64,000 nt of DNA from Salminus brasiliensis (lineage: Eukaryota; Chordata; Actinopteri; Characiformes; Bryconidae): NCBI RefSeq assembly GCF_030463535.1, contig NW_027326711.1:1-64000 (forward strand), read 5' to 3'. Shown one piece after another: positions 2,968 through 64,000 of the stretch. Each line of letters starts with the position of its first letter. The stretch's first letter is position 1. The translations under genes and the position numbers were made by a program. The notes below the pieces were generated by a model. That model had not been told where the DNA came from and made no database searches. It worked only from the letters and a program-made list of their open reading frames with translations.

Positions 2968-3051
2968 CGCGGGGTGTGGGTAGGGGGTTATGGTCGCAGG
3001 GGCGCTAGCTCGGGCGGAGGGGAGAGGCCGGGGTGGTGGTGCGGCTCTTAC

Positions 3052-22263: not shown

Positions 22264-22333
<70 letters not shown>

Positions 22334-29251: not shown

Positions 29252-29305
<54 letters not shown>

Positions 29306-29656: not shown

Positions 29657-29697
<41 letters not shown>

Positions 29698-31211: not shown

Positions 31212-31254
<43 letters not shown>

Positions 31255-32374: not shown

Positions 32375-32445
32375 GCTGACAGGCCGGTCATATGACTTCC
32401 CGCCCGGCTCGGTGTCTTATACAGGCGGGGGGCGGGGCTTACAGC
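32375..32445 (-). promoter_or_regulatory. ctsz core promoter
   Basis: On the coding strand TATAAG (plus-strand 32416-32421) lies about 42 bp before the ctsz start codon. Just upstream is a GC box, plus-strand GGGGGGCGGGGC (about 32426-32437). CTCGGTG and CCCGCC words complete a short GC-rich promoter. The 5' UTR would be very short if this TATA-like box is used. Confidence 0.45.
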
Positions 32446-33654
32446 GGAACTCGGCTGCCTGTTAACCAGCAACAACTACAAACTCATGTTTATTCATATG
32501 TTTACTGTGTGTGAAGAACCCCCACAAACCCAAACACTTAGTCTGAGTGTTACAGGCTGAGAGTTTACAGGGTTAAAGACTGAGAGTTTACAGGGTTACA
32601 GGCTGAGTGTTTACACGGTTACAGACTGAGAGTTTACAGGGTTACAGACGGAGAGTTTACAGGGTTACAGGCTGAGTGTTTACAGGGTTACAGGCTGAGA
32701 GTTTACAGGGTTACAGGCTGAGAGTTTACAGGGTTACAGGCTGAGGGTTTACAGGGTTACAGGCTGAGTGTTTACAGGGTTACAGGCTGAGAGTTTACAG
32801 GGTTACAGGCTGAGAGTTTACAGGGTTACAGGCTGAGGGTTTACAGGGTTACAGACTGAGAGTTTACAGGGTTACAGGCTGAGTGCTTACAGGGTTACAG
32901 ACTGAGAGTTTACAGGGTTACAGGCTGAGAGTTTACAGGGTTACAGGCTGAGTGTTTACAGGGTTACAGGCTGAGAGTTTACAGGGTTACAGGCTGAGAG
33001 TTTACAGGGTTACAGGCTGAGGGTTTACAGGGTTACAGACTGAGAGTTTACAGGGTTACAGGCTGAGTGTTTACAGGGTTACAGGCTGAGAGTTTACAGG
33101 GTTACAGGCTGAGAGTTTACAGGGTTACAGGCTGAGGGTTTACAGGGTTACAGACTGAGAGTTTACAGGGTTACAGGCTGAGTGCTTACAGGGTTACAGA
33201 CTGAGAGTTTACAGGGTTACAGGCTGAGTGTTTACACGGTTACAGGCTGAGTGTTTACAGGGTTACAGGCTGAGAGTTTACAGGGTTACAGGCTGAGTGT
33301 TTACAGGGTTACAGACTGAGAGTTTACAGGGTTACAGACTGAGAGTTTACAGGGTTACAGGCTGAGTGTTTACCGACTGAGTGTTTACAGGGTTACAGGC
33401 TGAGTGTTTACAGGGTTACAGACTGAGAGTTTACAGGGTTACAGACTGAGAGTTTACAGGGTTACAGGCTGAGTGTTTACAGACTGAGTGTTTACAGGGT
33501 TACAGGCTGAGTGTTTACACGGTTACAGACTGAGAGTTTACAGGGTTACAGACTGAGAGTTTACACGGTTACAGACTGAGAGTTTACAGGGTTACAGACT
33601 GAGAGTTTACAGGGTTACAGGCTGAGTGTTTACACGGTTACAGGCTGAGTGTTT

Positions 33655-36600
33655 ACAGACTGAGTGTTTACAGGGTTACAGGCTGAGAGTTTACAGGGTT
33701 ACAGGCTGAGAGTTTACACGGTTACAGACTGAGAGTTTACAGGGTTACAGGCTGAGAGTTTACAGGGTTACAGGCTGAGGGTTTACAGGGTTACAGACTG
33801 AGAGTTTACAGGGTTACAGGCTGAGTGCTTACAGGGTTACAGACTGAGAGTTTACAGGGTTACAGACTGAGAGTTTACAGGGTTACAGGCTGAGTGTTTA
33901 CAGGGTTACAGACTGAGAGTTTACAGGGTTACAGACTGAGAGTTTACAGGGTTACAGGCTGAGTGTTTACAGGGTTACAGACTGAGAGTTTACAGGGTTA
34001 CAGGCTGAGTGTTTACCGACTGAGTGTTTACAGGGTTACAGGCTGAGTGTTTACAGGGTTACAGACTGAGAGTTTACAGGGTTACAGACTGAGAGTTTAC
34101 AGGGTTACAGGCTGAGTGTTTACAGACTGAGTGTTTACAGGGTTACAGGCTGAGTGTTTACACGGTTACAGACTGAGAGTTTACAGGGTTACAGACTGAG
34201 AGTTTACACGGTTACAGGCTGAGTGTTTACACGGTTACAGACTGAGAGTTTACAGGGTTACACACTGAGAGTTTACAGGGTTACAGGCTGAGTGTTTACA
34301 GGGTTACAGACTGAGAGTTTACAGGGTTACAGACTGAGAGTTTACAGGGTTACAGGCTGAGTGTTACAGGCTGAGTGTTTACAGGGTTACAGGCTGAGAG
34401 TTTACAGGGTTACAGACTGAGAGTTTACAGGGTTACAGACTGAGAGTTTACAGGGTTACAGGCTGAGTGTTTACACGGTTACAGGCTGAGTGTTTACAGA
34501 CTGAGTGTTTACAGGGTTACAGGCTGAGTGTTTACACGGTTACAGGCTGAGTGTTTACAGACTGAGTGTTTACAGGGTTACAGGCTGAGTGTTTACAGGG
34601 TTACAGGCTGAGTGTTTACACGGTTACAGACTGAGAGTTTACAGGGTTACAGACTGAGTGTTTACAGGGTTACAGGCTGAGTGTTTACACGGTTACAGGC
34701 TGAGTGTTTACAGACTGAGTGTTTACACGGTTACAGGCTGAGTGTTTACAGACTGAGTGTTTACAGGGTTACAGGCTGAGTGTTTACAGACTATTTACAG
34801 GCTGAGTGTTTACAGGGTTACAGGCTGAGTGTTTACACGGCTACAGGCTGAGTTTACAGGGTTACAGGCTGAGTGTTTACACGGTTACAGGCTGAGAGTT
34901 TACAGGGTTACAGATTGAGAGTTTACAGGGTTACAGGCTGAGTGTTTACAGGGTTACAGACTGAGAGTTTACAGGGTTACAGACTGAGAGTTTACAGGGT
35001 TACAGGCTGAGTGTTACAGGCTGAGAGTTTACAGGGTTACAGACTGAGAGTTTACAGGGTTACAGACTGAGAGTTTACAGGGTTACAGGCTGAGTGTTTA
35101 CAGGGTTACAGACTGAGAGTTTACAGGGTTACAGACTGAGAGTTTACAGGGTTACAGGCTGAGTGTTTACACGGTTACAGGCTGAGTGTTTACAGACTGA
35201 GTGTTTACAGGGTTACAGGCTGAGTGTTTACACGGTTACAGACTGAGAGTTTACAGGGTTACAGACAGAGTTTACAGGGTTACAGACTGAGAGTTTACAG
35301 GGTTACAGGCTGAGTGTTTACAGGGTTACAGACTGAGAGTTTACAGGGTTACAGACTGAGAGTTTACACGGTTACAGGCTGAGTGTTTACAGACTGAGTG
35401 TTTACAGGGTTACAGGCTGAGTGTTTACAGGGTTACAGGCTGAGTGTTTACAGGGTTACAGACTGAGAGTTTACAGGGTTACAGACTGAGAGTTTACAGG
35501 GTTACAGGCTGAGTGTTTACAGACTGAGTGTTTACAGGGTTACAGGCTGAGTGTTTACACGGTTACAGACTGAGAGTTTACAGGGTTACAGACTGAGAGT
35601 TTACACGGTTACAGACTGAGAGTTTACAGGGTTACAGACTGAGAGTTTACAGGGTTACAGGCTGAGTGTTTACACGGTTACAGGCTGAGTGTTTACAGAC
35701 TGAGTGTTTACAGGGTTACAGGCTGAGTGTTTACACGGTTACAGACTGAGAGTTTACAGGGTTAAAGACTGAGAGTTTACAGGGTTACAGGCTGAGTGTT
35801 TACAGGGTTACAGGCTGAGAGTTTACAGGGTTACAGGCTGAGAGTTTACACGGTTACAGACTGAGAGTTTACAGGGTTACAGGCTGAGAGTTTACAGGGT
35901 TACAGGCTGAGAGTTTACAGGGTTACAGGCTGAGAGTTTACAGGGTTACAGGCTGAGGGTTTACAGGGTTACAGACTGAGAGTTTACAGGGTTACAGGCT
36001 GAGTGCTTACAGGGTTACAGACTGAGAGTTTACAGGGTTACAGACTGAGAGTTTACAGGGTTACAGGCTGATTGTTTACAGGGTTACAGACTGAGAGTTT
36101 ACAGGGTTACAGACTGAGAGTTTACAGGGTTACAGGCTGAGTGTTTACAGGGTTACAGACTGAGAGTTTACAGGGTTACAGACTGAGAGTTTACAGGGTT
36201 ACAGGCTGAGTGTTTACCGACTGAGTGTTTACAGGGTTACAGGCTGAGTGTTTACAAGGTTACAGACTGAGAGTTTACAGGGTTACAGACTGAGAGTTTA
36301 CAGGGTTACAGGCTGAGTGTTTACAGACTGAGTGTTTACAGGGTTACAGGCTGAGTGTTTACACGGTTACAGACTGAGAGTTTACAGGGTTACAGACTGA
36401 GAGTTTACACAGTTACAGACTGAGAGTTTACAGGGTTACAGACTGAGAGTTTACAGGGTTACAGGCTGAGTGTTTACACGGTTACAGGCTGAGTGTTTAC
36501 AGACTGAGTGTTTACAGGGTTACAGGCTGAGTGTTTACACGGTTACAGACTGAGAGTTTACAGGGTTACACACTGAGAGTTTACAGGGTTACAGGCTGAG

Positions 36601-39600
36601 TGTTTACAGGGTTACAGACTGAGAGTTTACAGGGTTACAGACTGAGAGTTTACAGGGTTACAGGCTGAGTGTTACAGGCTGAGTGTTTACAGACTGAGTG
36701 TTTACAGGGTTACAGGCTGAGTGTTTACACGGTTACAGGCTGAGTGTTTACAGACTGAGTGTTTACAGGGTTACAGGCTGAGTGTTTACAGGGTTACAGG
36801 CTGAGTGTTTACAGACTGAGTGTTTACAGGGTTACAGGCTGAGTGTTTACACGGTTACAGACTGAGAGTTTACAGGGTTACAGACTGAGTGTTTACAGGG
36901 TTACAGGCTGAGTGTTTACACGGTTACAGGCTGAGTGTTTACAGACTGAGTGTTTACACGGTTACAGGCTGAGTGTTTACAGACTGAGTGTTTACAGGGT
37001 TACAGGCTGAGTGTTTACAGACTATTTACAGGCTGAGTGTTTACAGGGTTACAGGCTGAGTGTTTACACGGTTACAGGCTGAGTTTACAGGGTTACAGGC
37101 TGAGTGTTTACACGGTTACAGGCTGAGAGTTTACAGGGTTACAGATTGAGAGTTTACAGGGTTACAGGCTGAGTGTTTACAGGGTTACAGACTGAGAGTT
37201 TACAGGGTTACAGACTGAGAGTTTACAGGGTTACAGGCTGAGAGTTACAGGCTGAGAGTTTACAGGGTTACAGACTGAGAGTTTACAGGGTTACAGACTG
37301 AGAGTTTACAGGGTTACAGGCTGAGTGTTTACAGGGTTACAGACTGAGAGTTTACAGGGTTACAGACTGAGAGTTTACAGGGTTACAGGCTGAGTGTTTA
37401 CACGGTTACAGGCTGAGTGTTTACAGACTGAGTGTTTACAGGGTTACAGGCTGAGTGTTTACACGGTTACAGACTGAGAGTTTACAGGGTTACAGACAGA
37501 GTTTACAGGGTTACAGACTGAGAGTTTACAGGGTTACAGGCTGAGTGTTTACAGGGTTACAGACTGAGAGTTTACAGGGTTACAGACTGAGAGTTTACAG
37601 GGTTACAGGCTGAGTTTTTACACGGTTACAGGCTGAGTGTTTACAGACTGAGTGTTTACAGGGTTACAGGCTGAGTGTTTACACGGTTACAGACTGAGAG
37701 TTTACAGGGTTACAGGCTGAGTGTTTACAGGGTTACAGGCTGAGTGTTTACAGGGTTACAGGCTGAGTGTTTACACGGTTACAGGCTGAGTGTTTACAGG
37801 GTTACAGGCTGAGTGTTTACAGACTGAGTGTTTACAGGGTTACAGGCTGAGTGTTTACAGGGTTACAGGCTGAGTGTTTACACGGTTACAGACTGAGAGT
37901 TTACAGGGTTACAGACTGAGAGTTTACAGGGTTACAGGCTGAGTGTTTACACGGTTACAGGCTGAGTGTTTACAGACTGAGTGTTTACAGGGTTACAGGC
38001 TGAGTGTTTACACGGTTACAGGCTGAGTGTTTACAGACTGAGTGTTTACAGGGTTACAGGCTGAGTGTTTACAGGGTTACAGGCTGAGTGTTTACAGACT
38101 GAGTGTTTACAGGGTTACAGGCTGAGTGTTTACACGGTTACAGACTGAGAGTTTACAGGGTTACAGACTGAGTGTTTACAGGGTTACAGGCTGAGTGTTT
38201 ACACGGTTACAGGCTGAGTGTTTACACGGTTACAGGCTGAGTGTTTACAGACTGAGTGTTTACAGGGTTACAGGCTGAGTGTTTACAGACTGAGTGTTTA
38301 CAGGGTTACAGGCTGAGTGTTTACAGACTATTTACAGGCTGAGTGTTTACACGGTTACAGGCTGAGTGTTTACACGGTTACAGGCTGAGTGTTTACAGAC
38401 TGAGTATTTACAGGGTTACAGGCTGAGTGTTTACAGACTATTTACAGGCTGAGTGTTTACAGGGTTACAGGCTGAGTGTTTACACGGTTACAGGCTGAGT
38501 TTACAGGGTTACAGGCTGAGTGTTTACACGGTTACAGGCTGAGAGTTTACAGGGTTACAGATTGAGAGTTTACAGGGTTACAGGCTGAGTGTTTACAGGG
38601 TTACAGACTGAGAGTTTACAGGGTTACAGACTGAGAGTTTACAGGGTTACAGGCTGAGTGTTACAGGCTGAGTGTTTACACGGTTACAGACTGAGAGTTT
38701 ACAGGGTTACAGACTGAGAGTTTACAGGGTTACAGGCTGAGTGTTTACAGGGTTACAGGCTGAGTGTTTACACGGTTACAGGCTGAGTTTACAGGGTTAC
38801 AGGCTGAGTGTTTACACGGTTACAGGCTGAGAGTTTACAGGGTTACAGATTGAGAGTTTACAGGGTTACAGGCTGAGTGTTTACAGGGTTACAGACTGAG
38901 AGTTTACAGGGTTACAGACTGAGAGTTTACAGGGTTACAGGCTGAGTGTTACAGGCTGAGAGTTTACAGGGTTACAGACTGAGAGTTTACAGGGTTACAG
39001 GCTGAGTGTTTACACGGTTACAGGCTGAGTGTTTACAGACTGAGTGTTTACAGGGTTACAGGCTGAGTGTTTACACGGTTACAGACTGAGAGTTTACAGG
39101 GTTACAGACAGAGTTTACAGGGTTACAGACTGAGAGTTTACAGGGTTACAGGCTGAGTGTTTACAGGGTTACAGACTGAGAGTTTACAGGGTTACAGACT
39201 GAGAGTTTACAGGGTTACAGGCTGAGTGTTACAGGCTGAGAGTTTACAGGGTTACAGACTGAGAGTTTACAGGGTTACAGGCTGAGTGTTTACACGGTTA
39301 CAGGCTGAGTGGTTACAGACTGAGTGTTTACAGGGTTACAGGCTGAGTGTTTACACGGTTACAGACTGAGAGTTTACAGGGTTACAGACAGAGTTTACAG
39401 GGTTACAGACTGAGAGTTTACAGGGTTACAGGCTGAGTGTTTACAGGGTTACAGACTGAGAGTTTACAGGGTTACAGACTGAGAGTTTACAGGGTTACAG
39501 GCTGAGTTTTTACACGGTTACAGGCTGAGTGTTTACAGACTGAGTGTTTACAGGGTTACAGGCTGAGTGTTTACACGGTTACAGACTGAGAGTTTACAGG

Positions 39601-40805
39601 GTTACAGGCTGAGTGTTTACAGGGTTACAGGCTGAGTGTTTACAGGGTTACAGGCTGAGTGTTTACACGGTTACAGGCTGAGTGTTTACAGGGTTACAGG
39701 CTGAGTGTTTACAGACTGAGTGTTTACAGGGTTACAGGCTGAGTGTTTACACGGTTACAGGCTGAGTGTTTACAGACTGAGTGTTTACAGGGTTACAGGC
39801 TGAGTGTTTACAGGGTTACAGGCTGAGTGTTTACAGGGTTACAGGCTGAGAGTTTACATGGTTACAGACTGAGAGTTTACAGGGTTACAGACTGAGAGTT
39901 TACAGGGTTACAGGCTGAGTGTTTACACGGTTACAGGCTGAGTGTTTACAGACTGAGTGTTTACAGGGTTACAGGCTGAGTGTTTACAGGGTTACAGGCT
40001 GAGTGTTTACAGACTGAGTGTTTACAGGGTTACAGGCTGAGTGTTTACACGGTTACAGACTGAGAGTTTACAGGGTTACAGACTGAGTGTTTACAGGGTT
40101 ACAGGCTGAGTGTTTACACGGTTACAGGCTGAGTGTTTACACGGTTACAGGCTGAGTGTTTACAGACTGAGTGTTTACAGGGTTACAGGCTGAGTGTTTA
40201 CAGACTATTTACAGGCTGAGTGTTTACACGGTTACAGGCTGAGTGTTTACACGGTTACAGGCTGAGTGTTTACAGACTGAGTGTTTACAGGGTTACAGGC
40301 TGAGTGTTTACAGACTATTTACAGGCTGAGTGTTTACAGGGTTACAGGCTGAGTGTTTACACGGTTACAGGCTGAGTTTACAGGGTTACAGGCTGAGTGT
40401 TTACACGGTTACAGGCTGAGAGTTTACAGGGTTACAGATTGAGAGTTTACAGGGTTACAGGCTGAGTGTTTACAGGGTTACAGACTGAGAGTTTACAGGG
40501 TTACAGACTGAGAGTTTACAGGGTTACAGGCTGAGTGTTACAGGCTGAGTGTTTACACGGTTACAGACTGAGAGTTTACAGGGTTACAGACTGAGAGTTT
40601 ACAGGGTTACAGGCTGAGTGTTTACAGGGTTACAGGCTGAGTGTTTACAGGGTTACAGGCTGAGTGTTTACACGGTTACAGGCTGAGTGTTTACACGGTT
40701 ACAGGCTGAGTGTTTACAGACTGAGTGTTTACAGGGTTACAGGCTGAGTGTTTACAGACTATTTACAGGCTGAGTGTTTACAGGGTTACAGGCTGAGTGT
40801 TTACA
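33655..40805. repeat. 7.1 kb higher-order block, copy 1
   Basis: Rare variants inside the satellite fix the block: CTGATTGTTT (36068), TGTTTACAAGG (36249), TTTACACAGTT (36403), ACACGGCTACAGG (34836), GAGTATTT (38402) and TTTACATGG (39853). Each recurs exactly 15188 bp later. Left and right borders were placed where line-by-line comparison stops agreeing. Confidence 0.85.
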
Positions 40806-43800
40806 GGGTTACAGGCTGAGAGTTTACAGGGTTACAGGCTGAGTGTTTACAGGGTTACAGGCTGAGAGTTTACAGGGTTACAGGCTGAGAGTTTACAGGG
40901 TTACAGGCTGAGGGTTTACAGGGTTACAGACTGAGAGTTTACAGGGTTACAGGCTGAGTGTTTACAGGGTTACAGGCTGAGAGTTTACAGGGTTACAGGC
41001 TGAGAGTTTACAGGGTTACAGGCTGAGGGTTTACAGGGTTACAGACTGAGAGTTTACAGGGTTACAGGCTGAGTGCTTACAGGGTTACAGACTGAGAGTT
41101 TACAGGGTTACAGGCTGAGTGTTTACACGGTTACAGGCTGAGTGTTTACAGGGTTACAGGCTGAGAGTTTACAGGGTTACAGGCTGAGTGTTTACAGGGT
41201 TACAGACTGAGAGTTTACAGGGTTACAGACTGAGAGTTTACAGGGTTACAGGCTGAGTGTTTACCGACTGAGTGTTTACAGGGTTACAGGCTGAGTGTTT
41301 ACAGGGTTACAGACTGAGAGTTTACAGGGTTACAGACTGAGAGTTTACAGGGTTACAGGCTGAGTGTTTACAGACTGAGTGTTTACAGGGTTACAGGCTG
41401 AGTGTTTACACGGTTACAGACTGAGAGTTTACAGGGTTACAGACTGAGAGTTTACACGGTTACAGACTGAGAGTTTACAGGGTTACAGACTGAGAGTTTA
41501 CAGGGTTACAGGCTGAGTGTTTACACGGTTACAGGCTGAGTGTTTACAGACTGAGTGTTTACAGGGTTACAGGCTGAGTGTTTACACGGTTACAGACTGA
41601 GAGTTTACAGGGTTAAAGACTGAGAGTTTACAGGGTTACAGGCTGAGTGTTTACAGGGTTACAGGCTGAGAGTTTACAGGGTTACAGGCTGAGAGTTTAC
41701 ACGGTTACAGACTGAGAGTTTACAGGGTTACAGGCTGAGAGTTTACAGGGTTACAGGCTGAGGGTTTACAGGGTTACAGACTGAGAGTTTACAGGGTTAC
41801 AGGCTGAGTGCTTACAGGGTTACAGACTGAGAGTTTACAGGGTTACAGACTGAGAGTTTACAGGGTTACAGGCTGAGTGTTTACAGGGTTACAGACTGAG
41901 AGTTTACAGGGTTACAGACTGAGAGTTTACAGGGTTACAGGCTGAGTGTTTACAGGGTTACAGACTGAGAGTTTACAGGGTTACAGGCTGAGTGTTTACC
42001 GACTGAGTGTTTACAGGGTTACAGGCTGAGTGTTTACAGGGTTACAGACTGAGAGTTTACAGGGTTACAGACTGAGAGTTTACAGGGTTACAGGCTGAGT
42101 GTTTACAGACTGAGTGTTTACAGGGTTACAGGCTGAGTGTTTACACGGTTACAGACTGAGAGTTTACAGGGTTACAGACTGAGAGTTTACACGGTTACAG
42201 GCTGAGTGTTTACACGGTTACAGACTGAGAGTTTACAGGGTTACACACTGAGAGTTTACAGGGTTACAGGCTGAGTGTTTACAGGGTTACAGACTGAGAG
42301 TTTACAGGGTTACAGACTGAGAGTTTACAGGGTTACAGGCTGAGTGTTACAGGCTGAGTGTTTACAGGGTTACAGGCTGAGAGTTTACAGGGTTACAGAC
42401 TGAGAGTTTACAGGGTTACAGACTGAGAGTTTACAGGGTTACAGGCTGAGTGTTTACACGGTTACAGGCTGAGTGTTTACAGACTGAGTGTTTACAGGGT
42501 TACAGGCTGAGTGTTTACACGGTTACAGGCTGAGTGTTTACAGACTGAGTGTTTACAGGGTTACAGGCTGAGTGTTTACAGGGTTACAGGCTGAGTGTTT
42601 ACACGGTTACAGACTGAGAGTTTACAGGGTTACAGACTGAGTGTTTACAGGGTTACAGGCTGAGTGTTTACACGGTTACAGGCTGAGTGTTTACAGACTG
42701 AGTGTTTACACGGTTACAGGCTGAGTGTTTACAGACTGAGTGTTTACAGGGTTACAGGCTGAGTGTTTACAGACTATTTACAGGCTGAGTGTTTACAGGG
42801 TTACAGGCTGAGTGTTTACACGGCTACAGGCTGAGTTTACAGGGTTACAGGCTGAGTGTTTACACGGTTACAGGCTGAGAGTTTACAGGGTTACAGATTG
42901 AGAGTTTACAGGGTTACAGGCTGAGTGTTTACAGGGTTACAGACTGAGAGTTTACAGGGTTACAGACTGAGAGTTTACAGGGTTACAGGCTGAGTGTTAC
43001 AGGCTGAGAGTTTACAGGGTTACAGACTGAGAGTTTACAGGGTTACAGACTGAGAGTTTACAGGGTTACAGGCTGAGTGTTTACAGGGTTACAGACTGAG
43101 AGTTTACAGGGTTACAGACTGAGAGTTTACAGGGTTACAGGCTGAGTGTTTACACGGTTACAGGCTGAGTGTTTACAGACTGAGTGTTTACAGGGTTACA
43201 GGCTGAGTGTTTACACGGTTACAGACTGAGAGTTTACAGGGTTACAGACAGAGTTTACAGGGTTACAGACTGAGAGTTTACAGGGTTACAGGCTGAGTGT
43301 TTACAGGGTTACAGACTGAGAGTTTACAGGGTTACAGACTGAGAGTTTACACGGTTACAGGCTGAGTGTTTACAGACTGAGTGTTTACAGGGTTACAGGC
43401 TGAGTGTTTACAGGGTTACAGGCTGAGTGTTTACAGGGTTACAGACTGAGAGTTTACAGGGTTACAGACTGAGAGTTTACAGGGTTACAGGCTGAGTGTT
43501 TACAGACTGAGTGTTTACAGGGTTACAGGCTGAGTGTTTACACGGTTACAGACTGAGAGTTTACAGGGTTACAGACTGAGAGTTTACACGGTTACAGACT
43601 GAGAGTTTACAGGGTTACAGACTGAGAGTTTACAGGGTTACAGGCTGAGTGTTTACACGGTTACAGGCTGAGTGTTTACAGACTGAGTGTTTACAGGGTT
43701 ACAGGCTGAGTGTTTACACGGTTACAGACTGAGAGTTTACAGGGTTAAAGACTGAGAGTTTACAGGGTTACAGGCTGAGTGTTTACAGGGTTACAGGCTG

Positions 43801-46800: not shown

Positions 46801-48845
46801 CTGAGAGTTTACAGGGTTACAGGCTGAGTGTTTACCGACTGAGTGTTTACAGGGTTACAGGCTGAGTGTTTACAGGGTTACAGACTGAGAGTTTACAGGG
46901 TTACAGACTGAGAGTTTACAGGGTTACAGGCTGAGTGTTTACAGACTGAGTGTTTACAGGGTTACAGGCTGAGTGTTTACACGGTTACAGACTGAGAGTT
47001 TACAGGGTTACAGACTGAGAGTTTACACGGTTACAGGCTGAGTGTTTACACGGTTACAGACTGAGAGTTTACAGGGTTACACACTGAGAGTTTACAGGGT
47101 TACAGGCTGAGTGTTTACAGGGTTACAGACTGAGAGTTTACAGGGTTACAGACTGAGAGTTTACAGGGTTACAGGCTGAGTGTTACAGGCTGAGTGTTTA
47201 CAGGGTTACAGGCTGAGAGTTTACAGGGTTACAGACTGAGAGTTTACAGGGTTACAGACTGAGAGTTTACAGGGTTACAGGCTGAGTGTTTACACGGTTA
47301 CAGGCTGAGTGTTTACAGACTGAGTGTTTACAGGGTTACAGGCTGAGTGTTTACACGGTTACAGGCTGAGTGTTTACAGACTGAGTGTTTACAGGGTTAC
47401 AGGCTGAGTGTTTACAGGGTTACAGGCTGAGTGTTTACACGGTTACAGACTGAGAGTTTACAGGGTTACAGACTGAGTGTTTACAGGGTTACAGGCTGAG
47501 TGTTTACACGGTTACAGGCTGAGTGTTTACAGACTGAGTGTTTACACGGTTACAGGCTGAGTGTTTACAGACTGAGTGTTTACAGGGTTACAGGCTGAGT
47601 GTTTACAGACTATTTACAGGCTGAGTGTTTACAGGGTTACAGGCTGAGTGTTTACACGGCTACAGGCTGAGTTTACAGGGTTACAGGCTGAGTGTTTACA
47701 CGGTTACAGGCTGAGAGTTTACAGGGTTACAGATTGAGAGTTTACAGGGTTACAGGCTGAGTGTTTACAGGGTTACAGACTGAGAGTTTACAGGGTTACA
47801 GACTGAGAGTTTACAGGGTTACAGGCTGAGTGTTACAGGCTGAGAGTTTACAGGGTTACAGACTGAGAGTTTACAGGGTTACAGACTGAGAGTTTACAGG
47901 GTTACAGGCTGAGTGTTTACAGGGTTACAGACTGAGAGTTTACAGGGTTACAGACTGAGAGTTTACAGGGTTACAGGCTGAGTGTTTACACGGTTACAGG
48001 CTGAGTGTTTACAGACTGAGTGTTTACAGGGTTACAGGCTGAGTGTTTACACGGTTACAGACTGAGAGTTTACAGGGTTACAGACAGAGTTTACAGGGTT
48101 ACAGACTGAGAGTTTACAGGGTTACAGGCTGAGTGTTTACAGGGTTACAGACTGAGAGTTTACAGGGTTACAGACTGAGAGTTTACACGGTTACAGGCTG
48201 AGTGTTTACAGACTGAGTGTTTACAGGGTTACAGGCTGAGTGTTTACAGGGTTACAGGCTGAGTGTTTACAGGGTTACAGACTGAGAGTTTACAGGGTTA
48301 CAGACTGAGAGTTTACAGGGTTACAGGCTGAGTGTTTACAGACTGAGTGTTTACAGGGTTACAGGCTGAGTGTTTACACGGTTACAGACTGAGAGTTTAC
48401 AGGGTTACAGACTGAGAGTTTACACGGTTACAGGCTGAGTGTTTACAGACTGAGTGTTTACAGGGTTACAGGCTGAGTGTTTACAGGGTTACAGGCTGAG
48501 TGTTTACAGGGTTACAGACTGAGAGTTTACAGGGTTACAGACTGAGAGTTTACAGGGTTACAGGCTGAGTGTTTACAGACTGAGTGTTTACAGGGTTACA
48601 GGCTGAGTGTTTACACGGTTACAGACTGAGAGTTTACAGGGTTACAGACTGAGAGTTTACACGGTTACAGACTGAGAGTTTACAGGGTTACAGACTGAGA
48701 GTTTACAGGGTTACAGGCTGAGTGTTTACACGGTTACAGGCTGAGTGTTTACAGACTGAGTGTTTACAGGGTTACAGGCTGAGTGTTTACACGGTTACAG
48801 ACTGAGAGTTTACAGGGTTAAAGACTGAGAGTTTACAGGGTTACA
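40806..48845. repeat. Satellite section with tandem 2.1-2.7 kb higher-order units
   Basis: The markers TTTACCGACTG (41999, 44703, 46835, 49204) and CGGCTACAGG (42821, 45525, 47657, 50026) keep the same spacings of 2704, 2132 and 2369 bp. The units therefore differ by internal insertions or deletions. The 2704-bp unit shows an extra internal copy of about 572 bp (CAGACAGAGTT twice). Confidence 0.75.
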
Positions 48846-51800: not shown

Positions 51801-54800
51801 TACAGACTGAGAGTTTACAGGGTTACAGACTGAGAGTTTACAGGGTTACAGGCTGAGTGTTACAGGCTGAGTGTTTACAGACTGAGTGTTTACAGGGTTA
51901 CAGGCTGAGTGTTTACACGGTTACAGGCTGAGTGTTTACAGACTGAGTGTTTACAGGGTTACAGGCTGAGTGTTTACAGGGTTACAGGCTGAGTGTTTAC
52001 AGACTGAGTGTTTACAGGGTTACAGGCTGAGTGTTTACACGGTTACAGACTGAGAGTTTACAGGGTTACAGACTGAGTGTTTACAGGGTTACAGGCTGAG
52101 TGTTTACACGGTTACAGGCTGAGTGTTTACAGACTGAGTGTTTACACGGTTACAGGCTGAGTGTTTACAGACTGAGTGTTTACAGGGTTACAGGCTGAGT
52201 GTTTACAGACTATTTACAGGCTGAGTGTTTACAGGGTTACAGGCTGAGTGTTTACACGGTTACAGGCTGAGTTTACAGGGTTACAGGCTGAGTGTTTACA
52301 CGGTTACAGGCTGAGAGTTTACAGGGTTACAGATTGAGAGTTTACAGGGTTACAGGCTGAGTGTTTACAGGGTTACAGACTGAGAGTTTACAGGGTTACA
52401 GACTGAGAGTTTACAGGGTTACAGGCTGAGAGTTACAGGCTGAGAGTTTACAGGGTTACAGACTGAGAGTTTACAGGGTTACAGACTGAGAGTTTACAGG
52501 GTTACAGGCTGAGTGTTTACAGGGTTACAGACTGAGAGTTTACAGGGTTACAGACTGAGAGTTTACAGGGTTACAGGCTGAGTGTTTACACGGTTACAGG
52601 CTGAGTGTTTACAGACTGAGTGTTTACAGGGTTACAGGCTGAGTGTTTACACGGTTACAGACTGAGAGTTTACAGGGTTACAGACAGAGTTTACAGGGTT
52701 ACAGACTGAGAGTTTACAGGGTTACAGGCTGAGTGTTTACAGGGTTACAGACTGAGAGTTTACAGGGTTACAGACTGAGAGTTTACAGGGTTACAGGCTG
52801 AGTTTTTACACGGTTACAGGCTGAGTGTTTACAGACTGAGTGTTTACAGGGTTACAGGCTGAGTGTTTACACGGTTACAGACTGAGAGTTTACAGGGTTA
52901 CAGGCTGAGTGTTTACAGGGTTACAGGCTGAGTGTTTACAGGGTTACAGGCTGAGTGTTTACACGGTTACAGGCTGAGTGTTTACAGGGTTACAGGCTGA
53001 GTGTTTACAGACTGAGTGTTTACAGGGTTACAGGCTGAGTGTTTACAGGGTTACAGGCTGAGTGTTTACACGGTTACAGACTGAGAGTTTACAGGGTTAC
53101 AGACTGAGAGTTTACAGGGTTACAGGCTGAGTGTTTACACGGTTACAGGCTGAGTGTTTACAGACTGAGTGTTTACAGGGTTACAGGCTGAGTGTTTACA
53201 CGGTTACAGGCTGAGTGTTTACAGACTGAGTGTTTACAGGGTTACAGGCTGAGTGTTTACAGGGTTACAGGCTGAGTGTTTACAGACTGAGTGTTTACAG
53301 GGTTACAGGCTGAGTGTTTACACGGTTACAGACTGAGAGTTTACAGGGTTACAGACTGAGTGTTTACAGGGTTACAGGCTGAGTGTTTACACGGTTACAG
53401 GCTGAGTGTTTACACGGTTACAGGCTGAGTGTTTACAGACTGAGTGTTTACAGGGTTACAGGCTGAGTGTTTACAGACTGAGTGTTTACAGGGTTACAGG
53501 CTGAGTGTTTACAGACTATTTACAGGCTGAGTGTTTACACGGTTACAGGCTGAGTGTTTACACGGTTACAGGCTGAGTGTTTACAGACTGAGTATTTACA
53601 GGGTTACAGGCTGAGTGTTTACAGACTATTTACAGGCTGAGTGTTTACAGGGTTACAGGCTGAGTGTTTACACGGTTACAGGCTGAGTTTACAGGGTTAC
53701 AGGCTGAGTGTTTACACGGTTACAGGCTGAGAGTTTACAGGGTTACAGATTGAGAGTTTACAGGGTTACAGGCTGAGTGTTTACAGGGTTACAGACTGAG
53801 AGTTTACAGGGTTACAGACTGAGAGTTTACAGGGTTACAGGCTGAGTGTTACAGGCTGAGTGTTTACACGGTTACAGACTGAGAGTTTACAGGGTTACAG
53901 ACTGAGAGTTTACAGGGTTACAGGCTGAGTGTTTACAGGGTTACAGGCTGAGTGTTTACACGGTTACAGGCTGAGTTTACAGGGTTACAGGCTGAGTGTT
54001 TACACGGTTACAGGCTGAGAGTTTACAGGGTTACAGATTGAGAGTTTACAGGGTTACAGGCTGAGTGTTTACAGGGTTACAGACTGAGAGTTTACAGGGT
54101 TACAGACTGAGAGTTTACAGGGTTACAGGCTGAGTGTTACAGGCTGAGAGTTTACAGGGTTACAGACTGAGAGTTTACAGGGTTACAGGCTGAGTGTTTA
54201 CACGGTTACAGGCTGAGTGTTTACAGACTGAGTGTTTACAGGGTTACAGGCTGAGTGTTTACACGGTTACAGACTGAGAGTTTACAGGGTTACAGACAGA
54301 GTTTACAGGGTTACAGACTGAGAGTTTACAGGGTTACAGGCTGAGTGTTTACAGGGTTACAGACTGAGAGTTTACAGGGTTACAGACTGAGAGTTTACAG
54401 GGTTACAGGCTGAGTGTTACAGGCTGAGAGTTTACAGGGTTACAGACTGAGAGTTTACAGGGTTACAGGCTGAGTGTTTACACGGTTACAGGCTGAGTGT
54501 TTACAGACTGAGTGTTTACAGGGTTACAGGCTGAGTGTTTACACGGTTACAGACTGAGAGTTTACAGGGTTACAGACAGAGTTTACAGGGTTACAGACTG
54601 AGAGTTTACAGGGTTACAGGCTGAGTGTTTACAGGGTTACAGACTGAGAGTTTACAGGGTTACAGACTGAGAGTTTACAGGGTTACAGGCTGAGTTTTTA
54701 CACGGTTACAGGCTGAGTGTTTACAGACTGAGTGTTTACAGGGTTACAGGCTGAGTGTTTACACGGTTACAGACTGAGAGTTTACAGGGTTACAGGCTGA

Positions 54801-55993
54801 GTGTTTACAGGGTTACAGGCTGAGTGTTTACAGGGTTACAGGCTGAGTGTTTACACGGTTACAGGCTGAGTGTTTACAGGGTTACAGGCTGAGTGTTTAC
54901 AGACTGAGTGTTTACAGGGTTACAGGCTGAGTGTTTACACGGTTACAGGCTGAGTGTTTACAGACTGAGTGTTTACAGGGTTACAGGCTGAGTGTTTACA
55001 GGGTTACAGGCTGAGTGTTTACAGGGTTACAGGCTGAGAGTTTACATGGTTACAGACTGAGAGTTTACAGGGTTACAGACTGAGAGTTTACAGGGTTACA
55101 GGCTGAGTGTTTACACGGTTACAGGCTGAGTGTTTACAGACTGAGTGTTTACAGGGTTACAGGCTGAGTGTTTACAGGGTTACAGGCTGAGTGTTTACAG
55201 ACTGAGTGTTTACAGGGTTACAGGCTGAGTGTTTACACGGTTACAGACTGAGAGTTTACAGGGTTACAGACTGAGTGTTTACAGGGTTACAGGCTGAGTG
55301 TTTACACGGTTACAGGCTGAGTGTTTACACGGTTACAGGCTGAGTGTTTACAGACTGAGTGTTTACAGGGTTACAGGCTGAGTGTTTACAGACTATTTAC
55401 AGGCTGAGTGTTTACACGGTTACAGGCTGAGTGTTTACACGGTTACAGGCTGAGTGTTTACAGACTGAGTGTTTACAGGGTTACAGGCTGAGTGTTTACA
55501 GACTATTTACAGGCTGAGTGTTTACAGGGTTACAGGCTGAGTGTTTACACGGTTACAGGCTGAGTTTACAGGGTTACAGGCTGAGTGTTTACACGGTTAC
55601 AGGCTGAGAGTTTACAGGGTTACAGATTGAGAGTTTACAGGGTTACAGGCTGAGTGTTTACAGGGTTACAGACTGAGAGTTTACAGGGTTACAGACTGAG
55701 AGTTTACAGGGTTACAGGCTGAGTGTTACAGGCTGAGTGTTTACACGGTTACAGACTGAGAGTTTACAGGGTTACAGACTGAGAGTTTACAGGGTTACAG
55801 GCTGAGTGTTTACAGGGTTACAGGCTGAGTGTTTACAGGGTTACAGGCTGAGTGTTTACACGGTTACAGGCTGAGTGTTTACACGGTTACAGGCTGAGTG
55901 TTTACAGACTGAGTGTTTACAGGGTTACAGGCTGAGTGTTTACAGACTATTTACAGGCTGAGTGTTTACAGGGTTACAGGCTGAGTGTTTACA
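48846..55993. repeat. 7.1 kb higher-order block, copy 2
   Basis: It repeats 33655-40805 at +15188 with near-perfect identity. The one clear difference I saw is G at 39312 against T at 54500. Confidence 0.85.
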
Positions 55994-58900
55994 CGGTTAC
56001 AGGCTGAGTTTACAGGGTTACAGGCTGAGTGTTTACACGGTTACAGGCTGAGAGTTTACAGGGTTACAGACTGAGTGTTTACAGGGTTACAGGCTGAGTG
56101 TTTACAGACTATTTACAGGCTGAGTGTTTACAGGGTTACAGGCTGAGTGTTTACACGGTTACAGGCTGAGTTTACAGGGTTACAGGCTGAGTGTTTACAC
56201 GGTTACAGGCTGAGAGTTTACAGGGTTACAGATTGAGAGTTTACAGGGTTACAGGCTGAGTGTTTACAGGGTTACAGACTGAGAGTTTACAGGGTTACAG
56301 ACTGAGAGTTTACAGGGTTACAGGCTGAGTGTTACAGGCTGAGTGTTTACAGGGTTACAGGCTGAGTGTTTACAGACTGAGTGTTTACAGGGTTACAGGC
56401 TGAGTGTTTACACGGTTACAGACTGAGAGTTTACAGGGTTACAGACTGAGAGTTTACAGAGTTACAGGCTGAGTGTTTACAGGGTTACAGACTGAGAGTT
56501 TACAGGGTTACAGACTGAGAGTTTACAGGGTTACAGGCTGAGTTTTTACACGGTTACAGGCTGAGTGTTTACAGACTGAGTGTTTACAGGGTTACAGGCT
56601 GAGTGTTTACAGGGTTACAGACTGAGAGTTTACAGGGTTACAGACTGAGAGTTTACAGGGTTACAGGCTGAGTTTTTACACGGTTACAGGCTGAGTGTTT
56701 ACAGACTGAGTGTTTACAGGGTTACAGGCTGAGTGTTTACACGGTTACAGACTGAGAGTTTACAGGGTTACAGGCTGAGTGTTTACAGGGTTACAGGCTG
56801 AGTGTTTACAGGGTTACAGGCTGAGTGTTTACACGGTTACAGGCTGAGTGTTTACAGGGTTACAGGCTGAGTGTTTACAGACTGAGTGTTTACAGGGTTA
56901 CAGGCTGAGTGTTTACAGGGTTACAGGCTGAGTGTTTACACGGTTACAGACTGAGAGTTTACAGGGTTACAGACTGAGAGTTTACAGGGTTACAGGCTGA
57001 GTGTTTACACGGTTACAGGCTGAGTGTTTACAGACTGAGTGTTTACAGGGTTACAGGCTGAGTGTTTACACGGTTACAGGCTGAGTGTTTACAGACTGAG
57101 TGTTTACAGGGTTACAGGCTGAGTGTTTACAGGGTTACAGGCTGAGTGTTTACAGACTGAGTGTTTACAGGGTTACAGGCTGAGTGTTTACACGGTTACA
57201 GACTGAGAGTTTACAGGGTTACAGACTGAGTGTTTACAGGGTTACAGGCTGAGTGTTTACACGGTTACAGGCTGAGTGTTTACACGGTTACAGGCTGAGT
57301 GTTTACAGACTGAGTGTTTACAGGGTTACAGGCTGAGTGTTTACAGACTGAGTGTTTACAGGGTTACAGGCTGAGTGTTTACAGACTATTTACAGGCTGA
57401 GTGTTTACACGGTTACAGGCTGAGTGTTTACACGGTTACAGGCTGAGTGTTTACAGACTGAGTATTTACAGGGTTACAGGCTGAGTGTTTACAGACTATT
57501 TACAGGCTGAGTGTTTACAGGGTTACAGGCTGAGTGTTTACACGGTTACAGGCTGAGTTTACAGGGTTACAGGCTGAGTGTTTACACGGTTACAGGCTGA
57601 GAGTTTACAGGGTTACAGATTGAGAGTTTACAGGGTTACAGGCTGAGTGTTTACAGGGTTACAGACTGAGAGTTTACAGGGTTACAGACTGAGAGTTTAC
57701 AGGGTTACAGGCTGAGTGTTACAGGCTGAGTGTTTACACGGTTACAGACTGAGAGTTTACAGGGTTACAGACTGAGAGTTTACAGGGTTACAGGCTGAGT
57801 GTTTACAGGGTTACAGGCTGAGTGTTTACACGGTTACAGGCTGAGTTTACAGGGTTACAGGCTGAGTGTTTACACGGTTACAGGCTGAGAGTTTACAGGG
57901 TTACAGATTGAGAGTTTACAGGGTTACAGGCTGAGTGTTTACAGGGTTACAGACTGAGAGTTTACAGGGTTACAGACTGAGAGTTTACAGGGTTACAGGC
58001 TGAGTGTTACAGGCTGAGAGTTTACAGGGTTACAGACTGAGAGTTTACAGGGTTACAGGCTGAGTGTTTACACGGTTACAGGCTGAGTGTTTACAGACTG
58101 AGTGTTTACAGGGTTACAGGCTGAGTGTTTACACGGTTACAGACTGAGAGTTTACAGGGTTACAGACAGAGTTTACAGGGTTACAGACTGAGAGTTTACA
58201 GGGTTACAGGCTGAGTGTTTACAGGGTTACAGACTGAGAGTTTACAGGGTTACAGACTGAGAGTTTACAGGGTTACAGGCTGAGTGTTACAGGCTGAGAG
58301 TTTACAGGGTTACAGACTGAGAGTTTACAGGGTTACAGGCTGAGTGTTTACACGGTTACAGGCTGAGTGTTTACAGACTGAGTGTTTACAGGGTTACAGG
58401 CTGAGTGTTTACACGGTTACAGACTGAGAGTTTACAGGGTTACAGACAGAGTTTACAGGGTTACAGACTGAGAGTTTACAGGGTTACAGGCTGAGTGTTT
58501 ACAGGGTTACAGACTGAGAGTTTACAGGGTTACAGACTGAGAGTTTACAGGGTTACAGGCTGAGTTTTTACACGGTTACAGGCTGAGTGTTTACAGACTG
58601 AGTGTTTACAGGGTTACAGGCTGAGTGTTTACACGGTTACAGACTGAGAGTTTACAGGGTTACAGGCTGAGTGTTTACAGGGTTACAGGCTGAGTGTTTA
58701 CAGGGTTACAGGCTGAGTGTTTACACGGTTACAGGCTGAGTGTTTACAGGGTTACAGGCTGAGTGTTTACAGACTGAGTGTTTACAGGGTTACAGGCTGA
58801 GTGTTTACACGGTTACAGGCTGAGTGTTTACAGACTGAGTGTTTACAGGGTTACAGGCTGAGTGTTTACAGGGTTACAGGCTGAGTGTTTACAGGGTTAC

Positions 58901-60481
58901 AGGCTGAGAGTTTACATGGTTACAGACTGAGAGTTTACAGGGTTACAGACTGAGAGTTTACAGGGTTACAGGCTGAGTGTTTACACGGTTACAGGCTGAG
59001 TGTTTACAGACTGAGTGTTTACAGGGTTACAGGCTGAGTGTTTACAGGGTTACAGGCTGAGTGTTTACAGACTGAGTGTTTACAGGGTTACAGGCTGAGT
59101 GTTTACACGGTTACAGACTGAGAGTTTACAGGGTTACAGACTGAGTGTTTACAGGGTTACAGGCTGAGTGTTTACACGGTTACAGGCTGAGTGTTTACAC
59201 GGTTACAGGCTGAGTGTTTACAGACTGAGTGTTTACAGGGTTACAGGCTGAGTGTTTACAGACTATTTACAGGCTGAGTGTTTACACGGTTACAGGCTGA
59301 GTGTTTACACGGTTACAGGCTGAGTGTTTACAGACTGAGTGTTTACAGGGTTACAGGCTGAGTGTTTACAGACTATTTACAGGCTGAGTGTTTACAGGGT
59401 TACAGGCTGAGTGTTTACACGGTTACAGGCTGAGTTTACAGGGTTACAGGCTGAGTGTTTACACGGTTACAGGCTGAGAGTTTACAGGGTTACAGATTGA
59501 GAGTTTACAGGGTTACAGGCTGAGTGTTTACAGGGTTACAGACTGAGAGTTTACAGGGTTACAGACTGAGAGTTTACAGGGTTACAGGCTGAGTGTTACA
59601 GGCTGAGTGTTTACACGGTTACAGACTGAGAGTTTACAGGGTTACAGACTGAGAGTTTACAGGGTTACAGGCTGAGTGTTTACAGGGTTACAGGCTGAGT
59701 GTTTACAGGGTTACAGGCTGAGTGTTTACACGGTTACAGGCTGAGTGTTTACACGGTTACAGGCTGAGTGTTTACAGACTGAGTGTTTACAGGGTTACAG
59801 GCTGAGTGTTTACAGACTATTTACAGGCTGAGTGTTTACAGGGTTACAGGCTGAGTGTTTACACGGTTACAGGCTGAGTTTACAGGGTTACAGGCTGAGT
59901 GTTTACACGGTTACAGGCTGAGAGTTTACAGGGTTACAGACTGAGTGTTTACAGGGTTACAGGCTGAGTGTTTACAGACTATTTACAGGCTGAGTGTTTA
60001 CAGGGTTACAGGCTGAGTGTTTACACGGTTACAGGCTGAGTTTACAGGGTTACAGGCTGAGTGTTTACACGGTTACAGGCTGAGAGTTTACAGGGTTACA
60101 GATTGAGAGTTTACAGGGTTACAGGCTGAGTGTTTACAGGGTTACAGACTGAGAGTTTACAGGGTTACAGACTGAGAGTTTACAGGGTTACAGGCTGAGT
60201 GTTACAGGCTGAGTGTTTACAGGGTTACAGGCTGAGTGTTTACAGACTGAGTGTTTACAGGGTTACAGGCTGAGTGTTTACACGGTTACAGACTGAGAGT
60301 TTACAGGGTTACAGACTGAGAGTTTACAGAGTTACAGGCTGAGTGTTTACAGGGTTACAGACTGAGAGTTTACAGGGTTACAGACTGAGAGTTTACAGGG
60401 TTACAGGCTGAGTTTTTACACGGTTACAGGCTGAGTGTTTACAGACTGAGTGTTTACAGGGTTACAGGCTGAGTGTTTACA
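52712..60481. repeat. Tandem duplication of a 3.9 kb satellite block (offset 3870)
   Basis: 52712-56611 and 56582-60481 agree line by line at an offset of 3870. Markers GAGTATTT (53590, 57460) and TTTACATGG (55041, 58911) confirm it. From about 62400 to the window end a similar sequence recurs at +3287 from the second copy. Confidence 0.8.
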
Positions 60482-63400
60482 CGGTTACAGACTGAGAGTT
60501 TACAGGGTTACAGACTGAGAGTTTACAGGGTTACAGGCTGAGTGTTTACAGGGTTACAGGCTGAGTGTTTACAGGGTTACAGGCTGAGTGTTTACACGGT
60601 TACAGGCTGAGTGTTTACAGACTGAGTGTTTACAGGGTTACAGGCTGAGTGTTTACAGGGTTACAGGCTGAGTGTTTACAGGGTTACAGGCTGAGTGTTT
60701 ACACGGTTACAGACTGAGAGTTTATAGGGTTAAAGACTGAGAGTTTACAGGGTTACAGGCTGAGTGTTTACACGGTTACAGGCTGAGTGTTTACAGACTG
60801 AGTGTTTACAGGGTTACAGGCTGAGTGTTTACACGGTTACAGGCTGAGTGTTTACAGACTGAGTGTTTACAGGGTTACAGGCTGAGTGTTTACAGGGTTA
60901 CAGGCTGAGTGTTTACAGACTGAGTGTTTACAGGGTTACAGGCTGAGTGTTTACACGGTTACAGGCTGAGTGTTTACACGGTTACAGGCTGAGTGTTTAC
61001 AGACTGAGTGTTTACAGGGTTACAGGCTGAGTGTTTACACGGTTACAGGCTGAGTGTTTACAGACTGAGTGTTTACAGGGTTACAGGCTGAGTGTTTACA
61101 GACTATTTACAGGCTAAGTGTTTACAGGGTGAGTGTTTACAGGGTTACAGGCTGAGTGTTTACAGACTATTTACAGGCTGAGTGTTTACAGGGTTACAGG
61201 CTGAGTGTTTACATGGTTACAGGCTGAGTTTACAGGGTTACAGGCTGAGTGTTTACAGGGTTACAGGCTGAGTGTTTACACGGTTACAGGCTGAGTGTTT
61301 ACAGGGTTACAGGCTGAGTGTTTACAGGCTGAGTGTTTATGGGGTTACAGGCTGTTACAGGCTGAGTGTTTAAAGACTGTGTTTACAGACTAAGTGTTTA
61401 CAGGGTGAGTGTTTACAGGGTTACAGACTGAGTGTTTACACGGTTACAGGCTGAGTGTTTACAGGGTTACAGGCTGAGTGTTTACAGACTGAGTGTTTAC
61501 AGGGTTACAGGCTGAGTGTTTACACGGTTACAGGCTGAGTGTTTACAGACTGAGTGTTTACAGGGTTACAGGCTGAGTGTTTACACGGTTACAGACTGAG
61601 TGTTTACAGGGTTACAGGCTGAGTGTTTACACGGTTACAGGCTGAGTGTTTACAGACTGAGTGTTTACAGGGTTACAGGCTGAGTGTTTACACGGTTACA
61701 GGCTGAGTGTTTACAAACTGAGTGTTTACAGGGTTACAGGCTGAGTGTTTACAGACTATTTACAGGCTAAGTGTTTACAGGGTGAGTGTTTACAGGGTTA
61801 CAGGCTGAGTGTTTACAGACTATTTACAGGCTGAGTGTTTACAGGGTTACAGGCTGAGTGTTTACATGGTTACAGGCTGAGTTTACAGGGTTACAGGCTG
61901 AGTGTTTACAGGGTTACAGGCTGAGTGTTTACACAGTTACAGGCTGAGTGTTTACAGGGTTACAGGCTGAGTGTTTACAGGGTTACAGGCTGAGTGTTTA
62001 CAGGCTGAGTGTTTATGGGGTTACAGGCTGTTACAGGCTGAGTGTTTAAAGACTGTGTTTACAGACTAAGTGTTTACAGGGTGAGTGTTTACAGGGTTAC
62101 AGACTGAGTGTTTACACGGTTACAGGCTGAGTGTTTACAGGGTTACAGGCTGAGTGTTTACAGACTATTTACAGGCTAAGTGTTTACAGGGTGAGTGTTT
62201 ACAGGGTTACAGGCTAAGTGTTTACAGGGTTACAGACTGAGTGTTTACAGGGTTACAGGCTGAGTGTTTACACGGTTACAGGCTGAGTGTTTACAGACTG
62301 AGTGTTTACAGGGTTACAGGCTGAGTGTTTACAGGGTTACAGGCTGAGTGTTTACAGACTGAGTGTTTACAGGGTTACAGGCTGAGTGTTTACACGGTTA
62401 CAGACTGAGAGTTTACAGGGTTACAGACTGAGTGTTTACAGGGTTACAGGCTGAGTGTTTACACGGTTACAGGCTGAGTGTTTACACGGTTACAGGCTGA
62501 GTGTTTACAGACTGAGTGTTTACAGGGTTACAGGCTGAGTGTTTACAGACTATTTACAGGCTGAGTGTTTACACGGTTACAGGCTGAGTGTTTACACGGT
62601 TACAGGCTGAGTGTTTACAGACTGAGTGTTTACAGGGTTACAGGCTGAGTGTTTACAGACTATTTACAGGCTGAGTGTTTACAGGGTTACAGGCTGAGTG
62701 TTTACACGGTTACAGGCTGAGTTTACAGGGTTACAGGCTGAGTGTTTACACGGTTACAGGCTGAGAGTTTACAGGGTTACAGATTGAGAGTTTACAGGGT
62801 TACAGGCTGAGTGTTTACAGGGTTACAGACTGAGAGTTTACAGGGTTACAGACTGAGAGTTTACAGGGTTACAGGCTGAGTGTTACAGGCTGAGTGTTTA
62901 CACGGTTACAGACTGAGAGTTTACAGGGTTACAGACTGAGAGTTTACAGGGTTACAGGCTGAGTGTTTACAGGGTTACAGGCTGAGTGTTTACAGGGTTA
63001 CAGGCTGAGTGTTTACACGGTTACAGGCTGAGTGTTTACACGGTTACAGGCTGAGTGTTTACAGACTGAGTGTTTACAGGGTTACAGGCTGAGTGTTTAC
63101 AGACTATTTACAGGCTGAGTGTTTACAGGGTTACAGGCTGAGTGTTTACACGGTTACAGGCTGAGTTTACAGGGTTACAGGCTGAGTGTTTACACGGTTA
63201 CAGGCTGAGAGTTTACAGGGTTACAGACTGAGTGTTTACAGGGTTACAGGCTGAGTGTTTACAGACTATTTACAGGCTGAGTGTTTACAGGGTTACAGGC
63301 TGAGTGTTTACACGGTTACAGGCTGAGTTTACAGGGTTACAGGCTGAGTGTTTACACGGTTACAGGCTGAGAGTTTACAGGGTTACAGATTGAGAGTTTA

Positions 63401-64000
63401 CAGGGTTACAGGCTGAGTGTTTACAGGGTTACAGACTGAGAGTTTACAGGGTTACAGACTGAGAGTTTACAGGGTTACAGGCTGAGTGTTACAGGCTGAG
63501 TGTTTACAGGGTTACAGGCTGAGTGTTTACAGACTGAGTGTTTACAGGGTTACAGGCTGAGTGTTTACACGGTTACAGACTGAGAGTTTACAGGGTTACA
63601 GACTGAGAGTTTACAGAGTTACAGGCTGAGTGTTTACAGGGTTACAGACTGAGAGTTTACAGGGTTACAGACTGAGAGTTTACAGGGTTACAGGCTGAGT
63701 TTTTACACGGTTACAGGCTGAGTGTTTACAGACTGAGTGTTTACAGGGTTACAGGCTGAGTGTTTACAGGGTTACAGACTGAGAGTTTACAGGGTTACAG
63801 ACTGAGAGTTTACAGGGTTACAGGCTGAGTTTTTACACGGTTACAGGCTGAGTGTTTACAGACTGAGTGTTTACAGGGTTACAGGCTGAGTGTTTACACG
63901 GTTACAGACTGAGAGTTTACAGGGTTACAGGCTGAGTGTTTACAGGGTTACAGGCTGAGTGTTTACAGGGTTACAGGCTGAGTGTTTACACGGTTACAGG

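What the first reader, a model, noticed from the sequence alone, without database searches (positions are those of the whole stretch)
32541..64000. A 31 kb satellite with at least three nested levels of organisation beside a single-copy gene
Seen: 23/15-bp monomers, 2.1-2.7 kb units, a 3.9 kb tandem pair and a 7.1 kb block repeated at +15188. It begins about 170 bp upstream of the ctsz start codon and has no mobile-element insertions, unlike the left half. Inference: recent, repeated unequal exchange, as in centromeric or pericentromeric arrays, or a locally expanding minisatellite.
Basis: partly seen in the sequence, partly recalled or inferred. Interest (0 to 1): 0.75.

Follow-up and report, generated by a model that had tools for sequence, protein, structure and literature searches.

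The report
Giant single-locus minisatellite beside ctsz
A 37,000-base block of 23-letter repeats lies between two ordinary fish genes and seems to have grown recently by copying whole multi-kilobase chunks of itself; it is an unusually large example of a known kind of unstable repeat, and probably not a centromere.

Summary
The window is the first 64,000 bases of a small separate contig (77,500 bases) in a 1.07 Gb assembly, by its genes a fish. The array runs from 32,541 to about C101:69,610 (about 37 kb), between ctsz (start codon about 170 bp away) and the 3' end of an M17 aminopeptidase gene (npepl1).

It parses into 1,747 units of 48 types. Six units are unique, five of them within about 250 bp of an end. 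91% of the array lies in exact repeats of 2 kb or more. The largest, partly outside the window, is a 7,150-bp exact tandem copy at offset 7,157. All six large offsets tested are whole numbers of monomers.

The monomer was found only here: 1,329 genome matches with at most one mismatch, and 1,329 in this array alone. That argues against a centromeric satellite. A subtelomeric position is likely but circumstantial.

Proposed mechanism: homology-directed unequal exchange or copying of multi-kilobase, in-register blocks. Assembly error cannot be excluded without reads, and length polymorphism was not testable. Novelty: an unusually large, block-duplicated member of a known kind.

The parts
32541..64000 (+). 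Minisatellite array, 23/15-bp monomers in one orientation; continues outside the window to about C101:69,610 (about 37 kb in all)
33660..40805 (+). 7,146-bp block, copy 1; second copy at 48,848-55,993 (offset 15,188), one mismatch at 39,312/54,500
48848..55993 (+). 7,146-bp block, copy 2
41268..51099 (+). Four successive 2.1-2.7 kb units (offsets 2,704, 2,132, 2,369), exact over 2.4-2.6 kb between neighbours
52712..60481 (+). 3,870-bp exact tandem pair (exact run 3,900 bp, so 30 bp of overlap at the junction)
55086..62235 (+). First copy of a 7,150-bp exact tandem duplication (offset 7,157); the second copy is 62,243-69,392 of the contig, partly outside the window
29053..32374 (-). ctsz (cathepsin Z/X): 3 of 5 pieces scanned match Pfam Peptidase_C1; one matches PDB cathepsin X; ATG at 32,374 with a signal-peptide-like N terminus
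32375..32540 (.). The only non-repeat sequence between the ctsz start codon and the array (166 bp); must hold the ctsz core promoter unless that lies in the array (inference)
28563..28793 (.). About 230-bp dispersed repeat (probably a SINE; label recalled, no call names it) whose best-scored other copies lie near chromosome ends
22243..24261 (+). nelfcd exons (Pfam TH1, 2 of 2 pieces scanned), convergent with ctsz
16197..17366 (+). Tubulin exon (Pfam Tubulin and Tubulin_C; tubb1 by recall)

Best explanation
A locus-specific minisatellite (VNTR-type array) filling the interval between npepl1 and the ctsz promoter in a fish genome, probably in a subtelomeric region. Shown: a 23/15-bp monomer found at one locus only; multi-kb exact duplications in monomer register; a nested order (the 7,157-bp copy contains the junction of the 3,870-bp copy, so is younger); five of six unique units at the edges. 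Inferred: it grew from roughly 10 kb to 37 kb in about six large steps by homology-directed unequal exchange (sister or interallelic crossover, gene conversion, or break-induced copying) between misaligned monomers. Also inferred: it is neutral or only incidentally regulatory for ctsz, and length-polymorphic in the population.
For: Large exact repeats and the fraction of the array they cover; unit census, 1,747 units, 48 types, 6 singletons; 6 of 6 tested offsets in register; greedy stepwise undoing of tandem duplications, 37,084 to 16,544 bp in 20 steps, with a further ~7.1 kb duplication still visible; shuffle controls; single locus, 1,329 matches in the genome and 1,329 in the array; gene flanks; 34 of 36 placeable copies of a neighbouring dispersed repeat within 2 Mb of a chromosome end; human minisatellites map mostly to recombinationally active chromosome ends (PMC2599865, introduction; PMC7608644, abstract and one section).
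Against: No reads or second haplotype were available, so some exact copies could be assembly loops, which would also stay in register; the contig is small, separate and a round 77,500 bases long. GC content is 45%, not the GC-rich type enriched in human subtelomeres. The array is far longer than the minisatellites I know of (recalled). The youngest nested events lie on the npepl1 side, so nothing shows the ctsz promoter end to be the active one. The subtelomeric inference has no control query and rests on 40 scored of 4,808 candidates; the right flank is poor in minisatellites (53 of 7,876 bases).
Confidence: 0.8

Rival explanations
1. Assembly artefact: a shorter minisatellite whose exact multi-kb copies were created by the assembler walking a repeat loop more than once.
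For: Small separate contig of exactly 77,500 bases; copies exact over 7,150, 5,652 and 3,900 bp; the youngest copies are tandem; register is kept, as it also would be in a loop.
Against: Both flanks are present in one contig. The offset-15,188 copies differ by one base and are not adjacent. Blocks are nested, of different sizes and with different neighbours, which a single loop would not give. The two ends differ in monomer composition, though unevenly along the array.
Confidence: 0.13
2. Centromeric or pericentromeric satellite with higher-order repeats.
For: Multi-level exact repeats resemble higher-order organisation.
Against: Monomer found at one locus in 1.066 Gb; only about 37 kb; genes on both sides; irregular block sizes with no fixed higher-order period; a nearby dispersed repeat has chromosome-end relatives.
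Confidence: 0.02
3. A functional element of ctsz or npepl1 (for example an expanded enhancer or a repeat-bearing non-coding RNA) kept long by selection.
For: The array lies about 170 bp from the ctsz ATG and is strand-asymmetric, GC skew 0.38.
Against: One 139-bp stretch folded as DNA is no more stable than shuffles on either strand (z -0.98 for the G-rich strand, +1.42 for the other). Within-array identity is explained by recent duplication. No expression or conservation data were available.
Confidence: 0.05

Closest known systems
Vertebrate minisatellites / VNTRs (definition and MSY1 from PMC2599865, abstract and introduction read)
   Same: Unit length in the 9-100 bp range; tandem, one orientation; variant repeats interspersed; mutation attributed to exchange and conversion; human ones map mostly to recombinationally active chromosome ends
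   Different: About 37 kb and 1,747 units here (MSY1 alleles 48-118 units); inferred duplications of about 98-348 units in one step, whereas the MSY1 length mutants changed by 1-3 units; polymorphism not shown here
Subtelomeric VNTRs of human (PMC7608644, abstract and one section read)
   Same: Repeat pattern over 15 bp, likely subtelomeric, beside genes
   Different: GC 45% here; the human enrichment concerns GC above 60%
Centromeric higher-order-repeat satellites (recalled)
   Same: Blocks of monomers copied as larger units with near-identity
   Different: Single locus, irregular block sizes, between two genes, no centromere evidence

Membership tests
Minisatellite / VNTR | Tandem units of about 9-100 bp | tested here: met
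   23/15 bp units
Minisatellite / VNTR | Locus-specific monomer | tested here: met
   1,329 genome matches with up to 1 mismatch and 1,329 in this array
Minisatellite / VNTR | Signs of unequal exchange between units | tested here: met
   In-register exact duplications, 6 of 6 offsets tested; would also fit an assembly loop
Minisatellite / VNTR | Length polymorphism among individuals | not testable with these tools
   One haplotype only; no reads
Minisatellite / VNTR | Location near a chromosome end (usual, not obligatory) | tested here: inconclusive
   Contig not placed; indirect support from a nearby dispersed repeat
Centromeric satellite | Monomer shared by several centromeres or forming very long arrays (recalled) | tested here: not met
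   One locus of about 37 kb in 1.066 Gb of assembly; unassembled sequence is not covered
Centromeric satellite | CENP-A occupancy | not testable with these tools
   Needs ChIP or CUT&RUN
Centromeric satellite | Regular higher-order period (recalled) | tested here: not met
   Main offsets 2,132, 2,369, 2,704, 3,870, 7,157 and 15,188 bp, not a fixed period

The most novel reading that the evidence does not exclude
A minisatellite that grows mainly by copying blocks of roughly 100-350 monomers at once, perhaps by break-induced or multi-invasion copying seeded at a promoter-associated meiotic break site, rather than by the small steps reported for the human minisatellite MSY1. That would bridge VNTR dynamics and the block homogenisation of centromeric satellites at a locus that occurs once in the genome.
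Probability: 0.12. Interest if true: 0.5.

Novelty: new member of a known kind. Interest (0 to 1): 0.3.

Why it matters
Because the array occurs at one locus, is bounded by non-repeat sequence on both sides and is made of distinguishable monomers, its history can be read step by step. It is a clean place to ask how tandem arrays leap in size. It also suggests that the ctsz upstream region in this species may differ greatly between individuals, which was not tested.

Tried and rejected
Centromeric origin: disfavoured by the single-locus count and gene flanks. Coding or folded-RNA function: the only Rfam match in the window at gathering score is a LINE 3' element outside the array; no listed closed ORF of 80 codons or more starts in the array part of the window; DNA folding of one 139-bp stretch is near shuffles on both strands. 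Presence in viral contigs: no exact match to one 28-mer of the array. [quoted passage not shown] but the most recent nested events (3,870, then 7,157) lie on the npepl1 side, so this is not supported. A shared origin with a 19/22-bp array at C20:669-674 kb (same CAGRCTGAGTGT core with the same A/G variant) is possible but chance was not excluded.

Not achieved: placing the contig through the missing npepl1 exons, a genome-wide search for arrays with the same core, a single-copy check of ctsz free of the dispersed repeat (one search found no second ctsz copy, but its scored list was filled by the repeat), and a minisatellite-density comparison of chromosome ends with interiors. Literature: nine searches listed no paper that I recognised as describing this array; only titles and abstract starts were seen for most, so this is no proof of absence.

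Full report
What was checked. The window is bases 1-64,000 of contig C101 (77,500 bases) of a 1,066,335,885-base, 103-contig assembly. The genes suggest a teleost; the species is not known to me. With the rest of the contig the array runs from 32,541 to about 69,610, where unique sequence resumes. My scripts used 32,541-69,624 (37,084 bases).

Flanks. Left: ctsz on the minus strand. Three of five pieces scanned match Pfam Peptidase_C1 (one of the two misses was read in another frame than the gene), one piece matches PDB cathepsin X at 2.3e-29, and the first exon translates from the ATG at 32,374 to a signal-peptide-like start. The array begins about 170 bp upstream of that ATG. Right: a Peptidase_M17 gene on the minus strand (4 of 5 pieces scanned match; best 3e-17; one below its curated cutoff), named npepl1 by recall and neighbourhood; the array lies beyond its 3' end. 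Further left are nelfcd exons (TH1, 2 of 2 pieces) convergent with ctsz, and a tubulin exon. A paper reports gnas, nelfcd and npepl1 close to ctsz in both zebrafish and human (PMC13225230, one passage read), so this looks like a conserved gene neighbourhood, not centromeric DNA. I did not show gnas here: a candidate first exon at 2,953-3,504 has no Pfam match.

Anatomy. The array parses into 1,747 units of 48 types. The commonest are 23-mers that differ at a few sites and a 15-mer that lacks 8 bp between two TTACAG copies. Six units are unique: five lie within about 250 bp of either end, and one (39,305) holds the single mismatch of the offset-15,188 pair. The two ends differ: CTGAGAG-type units are 48% of the first 100 units and 0% of the last group (from 68,707), and 15-bp units go from 9% to 26%, but the change along the array is uneven and follows the block copies.

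Large copies. Exact runs: 7,150 bp at offset 7,157; 5,652 and 1,493 bp at 15,188; 3,900 at 3,870; 2,552 at 2,704; 2,504 at 2,132; 2,423 at 2,369; and others. 91% of positions lie in an exact repeat of at least 2 kb, and 69% in one of at least 5 kb. Six of six offsets tested are whole numbers of monomers, as homology-directed exchange predicts; an assembly loop would also keep register. Controls: the longest repeated run is 346 units observed, at most 7 in 20 plain shuffles and at most 29 in 20 second-order Markov resamplings. Four other arrays in the window and a 7,460-bp stretch holding the C20 array have no exact repeat longer than 525 bp, but those arrays are much shorter (0.6-4.5 kb), so the comparison is weak.

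Order of events. The 7,157-bp copy includes the junction of the 3,870-bp copy, so it came later. Greedy stepwise removal of intact tandem duplications (run at least 85% of the offset, up to 2 mismatches) shortened the array from 37,084 to 16,544 bp in 20 steps: five large (7,157, 3,870, 2,704 and 2,132 twice) and fifteen of 107-280 bp. A further ~7.1 kb duplication is still visible as two colinear runs at one offset, so an ancestor of roughly 10 kb is plausible. The order found this way is not unique. In the six main copy pairs (about 25.7 kb) there is one substitution, but the runs were chosen for being exact, so this count is biased low. At an assumed 1e-8 per site per generation (recalled) it points to thousands rather than millions of generations, unless gene conversion erased differences.

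One locus. The monomer pattern with up to one mismatch has 1,329 forward and 0 reverse matches in the genome, and the same count, 1,329, inside the array alone. Arrays found by loose similarity at C20 and C26 are 67-69% alike; the C20 one shares a core (CAGRCTGAGTGT) with different spacers, which may be chance.

Position. The contig is not placed. A ~230-bp dispersed repeat at 28,563-28,793 gave 39 other near-full matches (91-95% identity), from 40 scored of 4,808 candidates; ten further rows were short matches to other parts and were left out. For 36 of the 39 the nearest chromosome end could be computed and 3 were dropped for want of contig length: 34 of 36 lie within 2 Mb of an end and 36 of 36 within 3.5 Mb, against 8.8% and 15.3% expected for even placement on the 13 contigs of known length. 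This supports a subtelomeric origin of C101 but has no control query. The left 32.5 kb is itself rich in minisatellites (7,629 of 32,540 bases), the right flank is not (53 of 7,876); no genome baseline was obtained.

Interpretation. Shown: a large, single-locus, homogenised minisatellite with nested in-register duplications, as assembled. Inferred: growth by recent unequal exchange or copying of multi-kb blocks, probably in a recombination-active chromosome end. Not shown: polymorphism, meiotic origin, effect on ctsz. The main remaining doubt is assembly error; nested blocks of different sizes and non-repeat flanks on both sides make a simple loop artefact less likely, but reads are needed.

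Verdict. It is an extreme member of an ordinary kind, hence interest 0.3.

Noticed in passing
window 13541-14554 and 26068-26428: The same 34-bp minisatellite unit (ACCATCACATCTACAGTACACTCCTGACTGACCC, rotated) forms two separate arrays about 12 kb apart, as if carried by a mobile element or copied within the locus.
   Followed up: no
window 28563-28793: A ~230-bp dispersed repeat whose best-scored copies elsewhere cluster within 2 Mb of chromosome ends, 34 of 36 placeable: either a chromosome-end-biased repeat or biased change of copies there.
   Followed up: partly
C20:669,172-673,663 (L001-L008): A 19/22-bp minisatellite about 0.67 Mb from the chromosome end shares the core CAGRCTGAGTGT, with the same A/G variant, with the ctsz array; next to it is a second minisatellite.
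   Followed up: partly
window 7034-10668: A 3.6 kb array of a 10-bp unit (TGGGTATAGA), strongly G-skewed (GC skew 0.80 at 8,001-10,000), with a 287-bp exact internal copy.
   Followed up: no
window 5388-6365: A DDE-type transposase fragment (Pfam DDE_3, minus strand, 5388-6008) near a UnaL2 LINE 3' element at 6312-6365.
   Followed up: no
contig C101, 77,500 bases: The contig length is a round number and only C-terminal npepl1 exons were found on it, which suggests a cut made during scaffolding; the rest of the gene should be elsewhere in the assembly (searches unanswered).
   Followed up: partly
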